From assembly GCF_002192415.1 (NCBI RefSeq), contig NZ_CP021780.1, positions 8,060,001-8,124,000 of the forward strand: a stretch of 64,000 nt of DNA. The letters run 5' to 3'. This DNA is from Paenibacillus donghaensis (GTDB taxonomy: Bacteria > Bacillota > Bacilli > Paenibacillales > Paenibacillaceae). The position numbers and the translations under genes are program-made. Below, piece after piece: positions 14,428-38,486 of the stretch (position 1 is the first letter of the stretch; every line of letters starts with the position of its first letter). The notes under the pieces were generated by a model. It had not been told where the DNA came from, made no database searches, and was given only the letters and a program-made list of their open reading frames with translations.

Positions 14428-14808
14428 ATGGAAGTTAAGGAATGGATGCCTGACGAAGGGATTTTGCGCAATTTGGCAAAACGGCATGGGACGCCGTACT
14501 ACCTATACGATGCCGGCATAATCTCCCGGCAGTATACAGCATTGACAGCAGCTCTGCCTGAAGGCTGGGAGCTGTTCTATTCTGTCAAAGCCAATCCGCT
14601 CGCTGCTCTTTGCGGGCTGCTGCGCGGAGGCGGCTGCCGCTGTGAGGTGGCTTCTGCCGGAGAGCTGGCTCTAGCTCTTCGCGCCGGCTTCGATGCTGCT
14701 GATATTGTATTTACCGGCTCAGGTAAAACGAATGAAGAACTAGAGGCAGCGGTGGCTGCAAATATCTACAGCATCAATGTGGAGAGCGCTTACGAAGCCG
14801 GTGTTTGA
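14428..14808 (+). pseudogene. PLP-dependent decarboxylase (LysA/BtrK fold), N-terminal fragment
   Basis: The 126-residue product matches the first third of fold-III PLP decarboxylases (LysA, ornithine decarboxylase, BtrK): YYLYD, then FYSVKANPL with the PLP lysine at K54, then the CEVASAGEL and FTGSGKTNEEL barrel segments. Intact family members have about 400 residues. The frame breaks at about 14800, where sequence resembling a different protein begins. The fragment lacks the active-site dimer half and cannot be a working enzyme. It sits between the response regulator and GH140 genes without a metabolic link to them. Confidence 0.7.
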
Positions 14809-22298: not shown

Positions 22299-22373
22299 AT
22301 GAAGCCAAGAAGGCTGTGCTTGTGCTGAAATCGAGGAGCCGTATGCGATGATCCGCACGTACGGATCTGTGAG

Positions 22374-22399
22374 AGGCCCATGCAATTGCGCATGGGCCT
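22374..22399 (+). terminator. hairpin at the end of the glycosidase operon
   Basis: An 11-bp stem (AGGCCCATGC / GCGCATGGGCCT, AATT loop) about 75 bases after the GH95 stop. The T-run is weak (CCTTTTTA about 25 bases later), so termination efficiency is uncertain. The rest of 22299-22611 holds no supported gene. Confidence 0.5.
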
Positions 22400-22611
22400 A
22401 CTCGATTATAAAGAGCCTTTTTAAAATTCTAAGTCGAGACCCAAATCTTCGTAATTTGGTAAAAAATCGTTATAACGAAATTCACCCCTTGAAGAAATTG
22501 GAAAGACGAACCTATACTCAGGGTATCACACAAAAGGAGCGATGCACGCGGCGTTATCGTAAATGCCCTGAAATACTGAATTTATATACTTAGTATTGAA
22601 AGGAGATTGTT

Positions 22612-35893: not shown

Positions 35894-36742
35894 CTAGGTA
35901 AGAATCACAAATTCCTTGCCTTCTTTACGTTTTTTGGCATATTCAGCGGTTGCTGTGAATAATAAGTCGGAGGATGAATTAAGAACATCATTTGGAATGC
36001 CGAATACACTGCACGCTAGCGGAATCAGTAAGAGCGACCCGCCGGCAACGCCGGAGGCACCTGCAGCAGATACAGCAGATAAGACGCTAAGAATAAGCGC
36101 CATGCCAAAATCTACTTCAACTCCAACCGTATGAACAGCAGCGAGAGTCAAGGCAGAAATCGTAACAGCGGCACCCGCCATATTAATCGTTGCACCTAAG
36201 GGAATGGAGACGGAATACGTATCCTCATCCAGCTCCATTTTTTCACATAATCTCATGTTAATTGGAATGTTGGCAGCCGAGCTGCGAGTAAAGAATGCGG
36301 TAATTCCACTTTCCTTCAGGCAATGAAATACAAGGGGGTAAGGATTTCTGCGAATATTGAGATATACAATCAATGGATTAATAATCAGCGCCATAAATAA
36401 CATACATCCAATAAGAACAAGCAGTAATTTACCATAATCGAGTAAGGATGACAGTCCATTTGCTGTAATAGAATCAAAAACCAGCCCCATGATCCTCAAA
36501 GGTGCCAAGTTGATTACCCATTTGACGATTTGTGAGACGGCATCTGACAAATTAGCAAGTACTTCTACAATTCCATCAGGTGGAGTGAGATCGTTGGCAC
36601 CCTTTACAAGGGACAGCGAACCGGAAACATAAAACTTGCAATAACGGATATCAGCCCCGCCAAAAAAGTACTTAACCCATACAGGCCCAGAATTCGTTTC
36701 ATATTCGTTTGGTGGCCTTTTTGATGTTTGGATATGGCTCAC
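35894..36742 (-). pseudogene. sstT: decayed SstT serine/threonine:sodium symporter
   Basis: Sequence closely follows SstT ([18 protein letters not shown] core, [27 protein letters not shown]) but is damaged in four ways. The first quarter of the protein is missing. A one-base loss near 36616-36620 shifts [20 protein letters not shown] out of frame. About 45 residues are missing between GIVEVLANL and [10 protein letters not shown]. About 22 residues, including a conserved part of the transport domain, are missing between FGIPND and [10 protein letters not shown]. The last two losses keep the frame, so the remaining frame looks open, but a working transporter is very unlikely. Confidence 0.8.
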
Positions 36743-37104: not shown

Positions 37105-37133
37105 TTGAACATATTGTAAGATTCATGTATTAT
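37105..37133 (+). promoter_or_regulatory. sigma-A promoter for the Abi leader RNA
   Basis: TTGAAC (37105-37110) and TATTAT (37128-37133) with a 17-bp spacer, placing the start of transcription near 37140, right at the beginning of the hairpin RNA. Confidence 0.6.
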
Positions 37134-37139
37134 TATGGT

Positions 37140-37194
37140 AACAGATCCCACCACGCCTCTTCACAATGCGTACCAAGGTGGGCCTTTTATTATT
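37140..37194 (+). ncRNA. hairpin RNA upstream of the Abi_2 gene (abiF-type candidate)
   Basis: Directly after the promoter the sequence folds as CCCACC-ACGC-loop-GCGT-ACCAA-GGTGGG (37148-37181) followed by CCTTTTATTATT, a terminator-like end, about 15-25 bases before the ATG of an Abi_2 protein. Small structured RNAs in this position are known for AbiF-type HEPN toxins, where the RNA acts as the antitoxin. The match to that motif is from memory and needs a covariance-model search. Confidence 0.6.
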
Positions 37195-37207
37195 CAGGAG
37201 GAATTCA

Positions 37208-38083
37208 ATGGATCCGCAGGACTCAGTAGCATTAAAGCCACCTGCAACATTCGAAAGCCAACTTCAAATTTTGAAAAGCCGGGGTCTCATTATAGAAGAT
37301 GAAGATCTTGCAATTCGTGCATTACAACGGATCAACTATTACCGTCTGAGTGCATATGGATTAAGTCTTAAGAGGAATGATCAGTTTTTTGAAGGAGTTA
37401 CCTTCTCACAAATCCATGCACTATACGAATTCGATCATCGGTTTCGCTATTTAATTATGGACATGACCGAACAGGTGGAAATCGCATTTCGCACCCAGAT
37501 TTCATACCATATTGCTCATACATACGGCGTGTTGGGACATTTACAATCAGTACATTTTGAGAATGAAGGATATCATTCGCTATTTGTTAATGAATTAGAC
37601 AAGGAAGTTAGACGATCTCAAGAGATATTTATCAAATATCATTTCGATAAGTATGGAGGATTGATTCCTGTATGGGTGGCTGTCGAAGTACTTTCATTTG
37701 GCGCACTTTCAAAGTTGTTCTCCAATATGAAGAGTATAGATAAGAATCACATTGCTAAAACAAACTATCGAGCACCGGCTGTTTACCTTGAAAGCTGGCT
37801 TAAATGTTTATCCTACATACGCAATATATGTGCTCACTATGGTCGAATATATAACCGGCCACTTACAAGTAAGCCTAGGCTAAACGATCAATCTAAAAAG
37901 ATGGGTATTCAACAAAACAAGATTTTTGCTGACATTTATGTGCTCAAACAATTAATTCCTGACAGAGATAAATGGAGTGATTTTGTCATTCGCTTGGAAG
38001 CTTTGGTTTCCGCTTACGAGGAAGTTGTAGAGCTGGAGCGAATTGGTTTTCCTGGGAATTGGGAAGATATTTTAATAAAGTAG
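37208..38083 (+). CDS. Abi_2/AbiF-like HEPN abortive-infection protein
   Basis: A 291-residue Abi_2 (PF07751)-type protein. The N-terminal YYRLSAYGLSLK and the C-terminal HEPN RNase motif R205-N-I-C-A-H210 (Rx4H, in YIRNICAHYGRIYNR) are intact; a second possible R95-x5-H101 is in IAFRTQISYH. Such proteins cleave RNA and stop growth of phage-infected cells. The start at 37208 has CAGGAGG right after the hairpin RNA. It lies among gene remnants, as defence genes often do, and has lower G+C content than the glycosidase locus. Confidence 0.85.
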   Translation: MDPQDSVALKPPATFESQLQILKSRGLIIEDEDLAIRALQRINYYRLSAYGLSLKRNDQFFEGVTFSQIHALYEFDHRFRYLIMDMTEQVEIAFRTQISYHIAHTYGVLGHLQSVHFENEGYHSLFVNELDKEVRRSQEIFIKYHFDKYGGLIPVWVAVEVLSFGALSKLFSNMKSIDKNHIAKTNYRAPAVYLESWLKCLSYIRNICAHYGRIYNRPLTSKPRLNDQSKKMGIQQNKIFADIYVLKQLIPDRDKWSDFVIRLEALVSAYEEVVELERIGFPGNWEDILIK

Positions 38084-38090
38084 AACTAAG

Positions 38091-38124
38091 ACCTCCTTTG
38101 GATTTGGTAAGGAGGTTTTTTTGT
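38091..38124 (+). terminator. rho-independent terminator
   Basis: ACCTCCTT / AAGGAGGT stem with a 10-base loop, followed by TTTTTT, directly after the Abi gene. Confidence 0.85.
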
Positions 38125-38281: not shown

Positions 38282-38401
38282 TTGATCCGGTATGATGACC
38301 GGGACAATGCCTTATTTCATGAGGTTTCGCATGAAAGACGCCGGGAACTGCGGTCCAGCCAAGCTCCAGCGGGCTCGGACTTTGGATTTATGATAAACTA
38401 A
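38282..38401 (+). pseudogene. coding-like remnant, 39 codons
   Basis: A frame reading IRYDDRDNALFHEVSHERRR, then ELRSSQAPAGSDFGFMIN to a stop looks like a real protein end or start but is very short. A 24-codon frame (38223-38297, ending SSIDEGVDPV) overlaps it. I do not recognise either. Nothing else is seen in 38125-38486. Confidence 0.25.
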
Positions 38402-38486
38402 AAACCATATACAACCACACCGGACGTTGTATTGAAGTGGAATATAGAAGAGTAGCAGGGGCTGGATAGAGACAGGAGGATAAGGA

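What the first reader, a model, noticed from the sequence alone, without database searches (positions are those of the whole stretch)
37105..38083. AbiF-like HEPN protein with its own promoter-driven hairpin RNA
A complete Rx4H HEPN motif lies in an Abi_2 protein, preceded by a TTGAAC-17 bp-TATTAT promoter and a compact hairpin ending in a T-rich tract. AbiF-type toxins are known to be held in check by such an upstream RNA and have been linked to the origin of Cas13. The RNA, promoter and toxin together form a candidate RNA-antitoxin defence unit set among gene remnants.
Basis: partly seen in the sequence, partly recalled or inferred. Interest (0 to 1): 0.72.

Follow-up and report, generated by a model that had tools for sequence, protein, structure and literature searches.

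The report
AbiF toxin with RNA antitoxin
A Paenibacillus-like chromosome carries an intact anti-phage RNA-cutting toxin gene (AbiF) that is probably kept in check by a tiny hairpin RNA made just upstream of it, and many phage sequences carry the same kind of hairpin without the toxin, as if it were an antidote.

Summary
37147-37183 matches Rfam abiF RNA (RF03085, 42.7 bits, cut-off 37). The gene starts at 37208 (291 aa), is Abi_2 (E 2.6e-52), has the HEPN motif RNICAH, and its model matches PbAbiF-ncRNA (8vz6, TM 0.86). The promoter (TTGAAC-17-TATTAT) is supported by comparison: related RNAs keep it at a fixed distance from a 5' AACAG start (37140). It is a new member of a known kind, the AbiF type III toxin-antitoxin shown in C. 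difficile. Here one motif is both antitoxin and terminator; C. difficile has two motifs plus a separate terminator. Of 56 assessable bacterial abiF RNAs, 21 precede an intact toxin ORF, 9 a broken one, 26 none; no close AbiF gene examined lacked an upstream hairpin. Less expected: in viral contigs the loop occurs at least 120 times (reversed control: 1), yet only 4 of those 120 loci hold an Abi_2 gene in the DNA fetched. The viral stems differ but mostly still pair, leader and bulge are kept, and about a fifth lie beside tRNA genes. Named carriers include SBSphiJ, phiNIT1 and Silviavirus phages. Best reading: phage-borne mimics of the AbiF antitoxin. That is inferred, not shown.

The parts
37105..37133 (+). 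sigma-A-type promoter: -35 TTGAAC (37105-37110), 17 bp, -10 TATTAT (37128-37133)
   Evidence: among relatives' RNAs scoring 10 or more the -10 box starts 19-20 nt before the motif in 32 of 34, spacer 17 in 29 of 34
37140..37194 (+). inferred antitoxin RNA, about 50-55 nt: starts at conserved AACAGAT (37140), ends in the U-rich tract
   Evidence: fixed -10 to AACAG distance and conservation in 49 aligned RNAs; ends inferred, no transcript data
37147..37183 (+). abiF RNA motif RF03085; basal stem 37147-37152/37177-37182, inner stem CGC/GCG, loop CCTCTTCACAAT, 3' bulge
   Evidence: cmscan 42.7 bits, E 1.8e-4; covariation in the basal stem
37183..37194 (+). U-rich tract that would make the antitoxin hairpin an intrinsic terminator (attenuator)
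   Evidence: stem plus U tract before 37 of 40 close Abi_2 genes, a set partly chosen from RNA-positive genomes
37196..37201 (+). Shine-Dalgarno AGGAGG
   Evidence: sequence
37208..38083 (+). abiF/abiD toxin gene, 291 aa, Abi_2 HEPN protein; RNICAH at 37820-37837
38091..38123 (+). intrinsic terminator after the toxin gene (ACCTCCTT/AAGGAGGT then T run)
35894..36742 (-). left neighbour: remnant of sstT (serine/threonine symporter), lacking two ~130-bp stretches present in a relative

Best explanation
This is an AbiF-type (Abi_2/AbiD) type III toxin-antitoxin and abortive-infection unit. Transcription starts near 37140. Most transcripts should stop at the hairpin, which is at once the terminator and the antitoxin, giving an RNA of about 50 nt that binds the AbiF dimer and blocks its HEPN RNase site. 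Occasional read-through makes the toxin mRNA from the same promoter. When infection stops renewal of the short RNA, AbiF is freed and cuts RNA, halting the cell and the phage. Shown here: RNA family, paired stem, promoter place, HEPN motif, predicted fold. Shown elsewhere for a homologue: toxicity, premature termination, neutralisation in cis and trans, RNA-protein binding. Inferred for this locus: RNA ends, dual use of the hairpin, activity, and the infection trigger.
For: RF03085 hit. Abi_2 and AbiD profiles. 8vz6 by sequence, E 1.2e-33, and by predicted fold, E 5e-15 and TM 0.86, the only hit below 1e-3. R205, N206 and H210 invariant in 24 aligned sequences. Basal stem covaries: 14 double-change cells against 2.7 in shuffles, 0-3 in slid controls. 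Promoter score of 9 or more in 29 of 30 toxin-linked RNAs (window included) against 2.4% of random positions. Of 13 protein matches in 100 same-genus genomes, the 8 strong ones (E below 1e-60; one, L030, broken by a stop) all have a hairpin and U tract upstream: 5 RF03085, 3 with another loop. Toxins decay while the RNA stays (21 intact, 9 broken, 26 absent of 56), as expected of an antitoxin. Experiments on the C. difficile homologue: PMC12373285.
Against: No transcript, toxicity or phage data for this organism. Single RNA motif, whereas RCd22 has two. The window's promoter by itself is not far above chance. PADLOC names it AbiD, not AbiF; NCBIfam has no family for it. Upstream hairpins are not universal in the wider Abi_2 family: 10 of 27 more distant genes lack one by the same test, and the 5 weak same-genus matches have no RF03085 hit.
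Confidence: 0.88

Rival explanations
1. The hairpin is only a cis-acting attenuator terminator that keeps the toxin gene nearly silent; it does not bind the protein.
For: Hairpin plus U tract directly before the gene. In C. difficile the RNA region strongly reduced a downstream reporter, which the authors ascribe to termination (PMC12373285).
Against: A terminator needs no fixed loop, yet loop, bulge and leader are conserved. The homologous RNA works in trans and co-purifies with the protein.
Confidence: 0.08
2. The loop CCUCUU acts as an anti-Shine-Dalgarno sequence for AGGAGG (6 bp with one U-G), or the U tract masks the SD, adding translational control.
For: Complementarity is in the sequence; the leader fold pairs CCTTTT with AGGAGG, -15.8 against -12.4 kcal/mol for the leader cut before the SD.
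Against: The loop is kept in viral RNAs with no toxin gene behind them. Such a loop matches most Shine-Dalgarno sequences. Conservation of this pairing was not tested.
Confidence: 0.1
3. The toxin-less phage and bacterial copies are relics or plain terminators of tRNA operons, not antitoxin mimics.
For: 65 of 119 viral sites have a T-rich tail (13% of random positions). 21 of 119 lack a 6-bp stem by my test. 12 of 26 bacterial orphans score below 9 for the promoter. Rfam at its cut-off accepts only 3 of 18 phage loci tested, and neither of 2 plasmid orphans.
Against: Relics would not keep pairing while the stem sequence turns over: 98 of 119 with 6 bp or more, 11.6% with shuffled partners. Terminators need neither the 17-nt loop nor the A/C bulge and AACA-like leader kept outside the search pattern.
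Confidence: 0.3

Closest known systems
AbiFCd / RCd22 of Clostridioides difficile phi027 (PMC12373285; abstract, Results parts 1-2 of 4, sections 11-12 and Discussion part 1 of 2 read)
   Same: Abi_2 toxin with an R-N-x3-H motif; promoter-driven RF03085 RNA directly upstream; ACAGAA at the expected start in phiC2; phiC2 homologue 41.7% identical
   Different: RCd22 has two abiF motifs and a separate terminator and lies in a prophage lysis module; here one motif is itself the terminator and the site is chromosomal next to a broken sstT
PbAbiF / AbiFr, PDB 8vz6
   Same: predicted fold (TM 0.86) and HEPN motif
   Different: 28% identical in the structural alignment; its RNA was not compared here
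Rfam RF03085 abiF RNA
   Same: over the curated cut-off, same stem and loop
   Different: the 37-position family model does not include the 5' AACAG leader and the U tract that the relatives conserve
phi-TE pseudo-ToxI, phage RNA mimic of the ToxIN antitoxin (PMC3475682; listing and start of abstract only; the name pseudo-ToxI is recalled)
   Same: closest kind for the toxin-less phage copies: an RNA antitoxin imitated by a phage
   Different: different toxin and RNA; its escape arose in rare mutants (abstract start), while the abiF-like RNAs are part of the sequenced genomes of several named phage groups

Membership tests
AbiF/AbiD (Abi_2) toxin | Abi_2 domain over the curated cut-off | tested here: met
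   178.2 bits, cut-off 25.6
AbiF/AbiD (Abi_2) toxin | HEPN R-polar-x3-H motif | tested here: met
   RNICAH 205-210; R, N and H invariant in 24 aligned sequences
AbiF/AbiD (Abi_2) toxin | AbiF fold | tested here: met
   predicted model pLDDT 94.9; 8vz6 TM 0.86
AbiF/AbiD (Abi_2) toxin | homodimer, RNase activity, toxicity | not testable with these tools
   toxicity shown and dimer modelled for AbiFCd in print
abiF RNA (RF03085) | covariance model over its cut-off | tested here: met
   42.7 against 37 bits
abiF RNA (RF03085) | paired stem supported by compensatory changes | tested here: met
type III toxin-antitoxin | RNA gene then terminator then toxin from one promoter | tested here: met
   layout; transcription itself not tested
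type III toxin-antitoxin | antitoxin of repeated units (as in ToxI; recalled) | tested here: not met
   one motif only in window and genome; RCd22 has two
type III toxin-antitoxin | RNA binds and neutralises the toxin | not testable with these tools
   shown for the C. difficile homologue
phage antitoxin mimic (phage copies only) | antitoxin RNA without its toxin in a phage genome | tested here: met
   Abi_2 in 4 of 120 core-bearing viral loci, in the DNA fetched
phage antitoxin mimic (phage copies only) | protects the phage from the toxin | not testable with these tools
   one correlative conference abstract

The most novel reading that the evidence does not exclude
Unrelated phages carry free-standing mimics of the AbiF antitoxin RNA, some inside their tRNA regions, as a standing counter-defence. 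They keep the parts presumed to touch AbiF (AACAG-like leader, CCUCUU loop, A/C bulge), let the stem sequence drift as the reported stem-swap mutant allows, and omit the toxin. This could explain why an abiF-positive MRSA isolate resisted a two-phage cocktail called Kayvirus-like but not one with Romulus added: the Silviavirus phages examined carry a recognisable copy, and the Kayvirus-type phages examined a copy with an altered loop that scores far lower.
Probability: 0.6. Interest if true: 0.8.

Novelty: new member of a known kind. Interest (0 to 1): 0.52.

Why it matters
The unit itself is a clean, compact example of the system thought to be ancestral to Cas13, with antitoxin and terminator apparently fused in one hairpin. 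The comparative work makes a larger question directly testable: do phages disarm AbiF with copies of its own antidote RNA? Named phages of B. subtilis (SBSphiJ, phiNIT1) carry the candidate RNA, so one deletion and one co-expression test would decide it. It might also give a function to some of the unexplained non-coding RNA in phage tRNA regions.

Tried and rejected
Lactococcal phage sk1 (a region of it is reported, in a reference title only, to protect phage 712 from AbiF; Rince 2000, seen): no RF03085 match at E 5 or less, and R1 matches only at E 0.28 and 0.51 over an annotated terminator. Which region protects is unknown to me and pNP40 was not found, so sk1 gives no support. A loop-only pattern from the second RNA class (GTTCCTTNCGAGGAC) in viral contigs gave 120 stretches, one with Abi_2: mostly chance. 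Mycobacterium, Fromanvirus and Gordonia matches of the 43-nt query (61 of 159 records) look like chance: those listed lie in a capsid gene and match one half of the query only. Close AbiF relatives in viral contigs by protein pattern: none. Guide-RNA function was considered and dropped: the RNA has no variable spacer part. The loss of AACAG in bacterial orphans (16 of 26 keep it, against 26 of 30) is not significant, p 0.06. No Staphylococcus aureus AbiF RNA could be examined, so which RNA class it uses is unknown. The Kayvirus homologue lies upstream of tRNA-Met in vB_SauM-515A1 (14615-14630), not inside the reported abundant lncRNA1 region after that tRNA.

Full report
What is there. TTGAAC (37105-37110), 17 bp, TATTAT (37128-37133), a conserved AACAGAT start at 37140, a hairpin (stem 37147-37152/37177-37182), a U-rich tract (37183-37194), AGGAGG (37196-37201) and ATG 37208 follow each other without waste. 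Rfam's abiF RNA model hits 37147-37183 with 42.7 bits, over its cut-off of 37. In the 8.54-Mb genome the searches report one abiF RNA and one Abi_2 gene, both here. The nearest named relative found is Paenibacillus antibioticophila, protein 77% identical, which also has an abiF RNA. The protein is Abi_2 (E 2.6e-52) and AbiD in PADLOC (E 4.9e-106). It matches 8vz6, the PbAbiF-ncRNA complex, by sequence (E 1.2e-33) and as an AlphaFold model (pLDDT 94.9; TM 0.86; only fold hit below 1e-3). RNICAH at residues 205-210 has R, N and H invariant among 24 aligned sequences, window included.

Is it more than chance? For the window alone the promoter is modest: 9 of 12 consensus letters, reached by 2.4% of random positions. 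I took RF03085 hits from 295 same-family genomes (20 positive), 398 same-class (22) and 398 same-phylum (18); the draws overlap, giving 57 RNA loci including the window. In toxin-linked RNAs the promoter score is 9 or more in 29 of 30, and AACAG (or AATAG) lies at the expected start in 26 of 30. For RNAs scoring 10 or more, the -10 box starts 19 or 20 nt before the motif in 32 of 34, with a 17-nt spacer in 29 of 34. I aligned 47 of the 57 RNAs plus two found by protein search (L025, L026): the basal stem shows compensatory changes (14 double-change cells against 2.7 in shuffles; slid controls 0-3). By eye three rows (L015, L020, L021) align one base off and lower the count.

How it works. The hairpin carries both the antitoxin motif and a U tract, so the short RNA and attenuation of the toxin gene would come from one element. 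In phiC2, whose AbiF is 41.7% identical and is reported 99.88% identical to the tested AbiFCd, ACAGAA stands at the expected start; RCd22 holds two motifs and a separate terminator. There, deleting the RNA raised toxin mRNA 17-fold, the RNA neutralised the toxin in cis and in trans, and stem-breaking but not stem-swapping mutations abolished this (PMC12373285). I infer the same here with one motif. RNA ends, toxicity and trigger are not shown for this strain.

Surroundings. sstT on the left matches relatives up to window 36954, but two stretches of about 130 bp present in a relative (L153) are missing, so it is a remnant. On the right, homology in the best matches resumes at 38383-38470 with an ABC-transporter pair. 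In G312, where both lie on one contig, sstT and the ABC gene are about 41 kb apart; in G295 they are on different contigs. No clean empty site could be read.

Other RNA classes. Of 13 protein matches in 100 same-genus genomes, 8 are strong: 5 have RF03085 and 3 (L027, L028, L030) a different apical loop on the same plan of promoter, AACAG-like start, hairpin and U tract, with no Rfam match over its cut-off. The 5 weak matches have no RF03085 hit. In a larger set, partly chosen from RNA-positive genomes, 37 of 40 close Abi_2 genes pass a strict stem-plus-U test (shuffles 6.1%) and the other 3 show a hairpin by eye; of 27 more distant Abi_2 genes 17 pass (shuffles 3.1%) and 10 do not. Seven of the distant ones carry another short hairpin (core like GTTCCTTNCGAGGAC); those of them scanned had no Rfam match.

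Orphan RNAs in bacteria. Of the 57 loci one (L022) ends at a contig edge. Of the other 56, 21 have an intact toxin ORF within 1.5 kb downstream, 9 a broken or partial one and 26 none. Nineteen of 55 RNA-positive genomes other than the window's have no Abi_2 match at E 0.001; in one of these, G136, the RNA lies at a contig end. Toxin goes first, RNA stays: the asymmetry expected of an antitoxin. Orphan promoters are weaker (9 or more in 14 of 26; Mann-Whitney p 1.5e-5, relatedness not corrected), so many are decaying.

Orphan RNAs in viral contigs. The window's own loop variant occurs 31 times. Of 120 core loci (1,038,236 bases) 4 hold an Abi_2 gene anywhere in the fetched DNA; directly downstream it is 3 of the 107 with more than 1 kb. 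None of 30 loop-variant sites examined (of 31) has one downstream. The flanking stems are of many kinds yet pair: 6 bp or more in 98 of 119, against 11.6% when partners are shuffled; after removing duplicates and adding the variant, 92 of 113 against 10.3%. Outside the search pattern the bulge keeps A (97%) and C (88%) in 97 non-redundant sites, and an AACAG-like leader is found at 63 sites against 5 in a control window 30 nt upstream (the number of sites with enough flank was not printed). A tRNA gene lies within 150 nt of 26 of 120 sites, all 26 on the same strand; random positions give 8.0%; non-redundant 23 of 113 against 6.7%. A promoter score of 9 or more is found at 17 of 119 (random 3.0%). 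On a model-fitted alignment from 100 of the 120 loci, 116 double-change cells against 22.1 in shuffles; that alignment leans towards the structure.

Named phages. A model built from the 49 bacterial RNAs (R1) finds the RNA in Bacillus phages phiNIT1 (51.4 bits) and SBSphiJ (47.2), Lactobacillus phage P1 (45.0), Enterococcus phiSHEF4 (36.8), the Silviavirus phages qdsa001, KSAP7, StAP1 and SPJ2 (27-28) and Romulus (24.5), and the loop only in Streptococcus Javan420 (28.2). In 913,429 bases of other viral contigs one place scored below E 0.01. In phiNIT1 it lies between tRNA genes 540 and 1,036 nt away; in P1 7 nt before tRNA-Gly. A tblastn search for this AbiF in the phage collection matched 87 of 50,697 records at E 1e-5, none named as a Bacillus phage, 2 Staphylococcus, 2 Enterococcus and 1 Lactobacillus. 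GH15 and vB_SauM-515A1 (Kayvirus) and two related Twortvirinae (JDYN, P68) have a homologous hairpin with a longer, altered loop: 12.3-13.4 bits against 27.2-30.9 for Romulus and KSAP7 with filters off, and no match for GH15, JDYN and P68 with default filters. A conference abstract reports one abiF-positive MRSA isolate that resisted a two-phage cocktail (Intesti13, Sb-1; called Kayvirus-like) but was reduced when Romulus was added (PMC12791408, whole text). That fits, but it is one isolate with other differences, and the RNA class of S. aureus AbiF is unknown.

Against the mimic reading. Rfam at its cut-off accepts only 3 of 18 phage loci and neither of 2 plasmid orphans. Many viral copies also look like terminators (65 of 119 with a T-rich tail), and 21 of 119 lack a 6-bp stem. 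sk1 shows nothing. IMG/VR contigs were not checked for being lytic phage. No binding or protection is shown.

Known and new. The unit is a new member of a known system. An abiF RNA in one cyanophage, and in three phage genomes in Rfam, is in print; the passages I saw do not propose a mimic (PMC9964418). I found no paper proposing phage AbiF-antitoxin mimics in the listings; the library holds only open-licence papers, and the AbiF-Cas13 paper of Zilberzwige-Tal and colleagues was seen only through a review and the C. difficile paper.

Noticed in passing
37166-37207: An ATG inside the hairpin is in frame with the toxin and open through the terminator (MRTKVG... extension), also in several relatives (L025, L076, L079); it has no evident Shine-Dalgarno sequence and was not taken as the start.
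   Followed up: partly
37183-37201: In a read-through transcript the U tract CCTTTT can pair with AGGAGG, partly hiding the ribosome site.
   Followed up: partly
22334-22406: Rfam group II intron match, 41.7 bits against a cut-off of 40.
   Followed up: no
L012, L013, L019: Orphan abiF RNA with promoter (score 9-10) and the same flanks in three same-genus genomes, just before an AraC-type regulator ORF (Pfam checked for L012): possible co-option.
   Followed up: partly
L069 892-1443 -: An abiF RNA with promoter stands just before a PemK/MazF-type toxin gene instead of Abi_2.
   Followed up: partly
L308 635-742: A viral contig with two different abiF RNAs in tandem.
   Followed up: no
L095, L113, L114, L116, L129, L132, L136: A second hairpin class (core like GTTCCTTNCGAGGAC) with a U tract before more distant Abi_2 genes; six of the seven were scanned without an Rfam match.
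   Followed up: partly
L158 1502-1555 (plasmid pBpOF4-01): Orphan abiF RNA, 77.8 bits with R1, on a plasmid with no annotated Abi gene in the 3-kb stretch.
   Followed up: no
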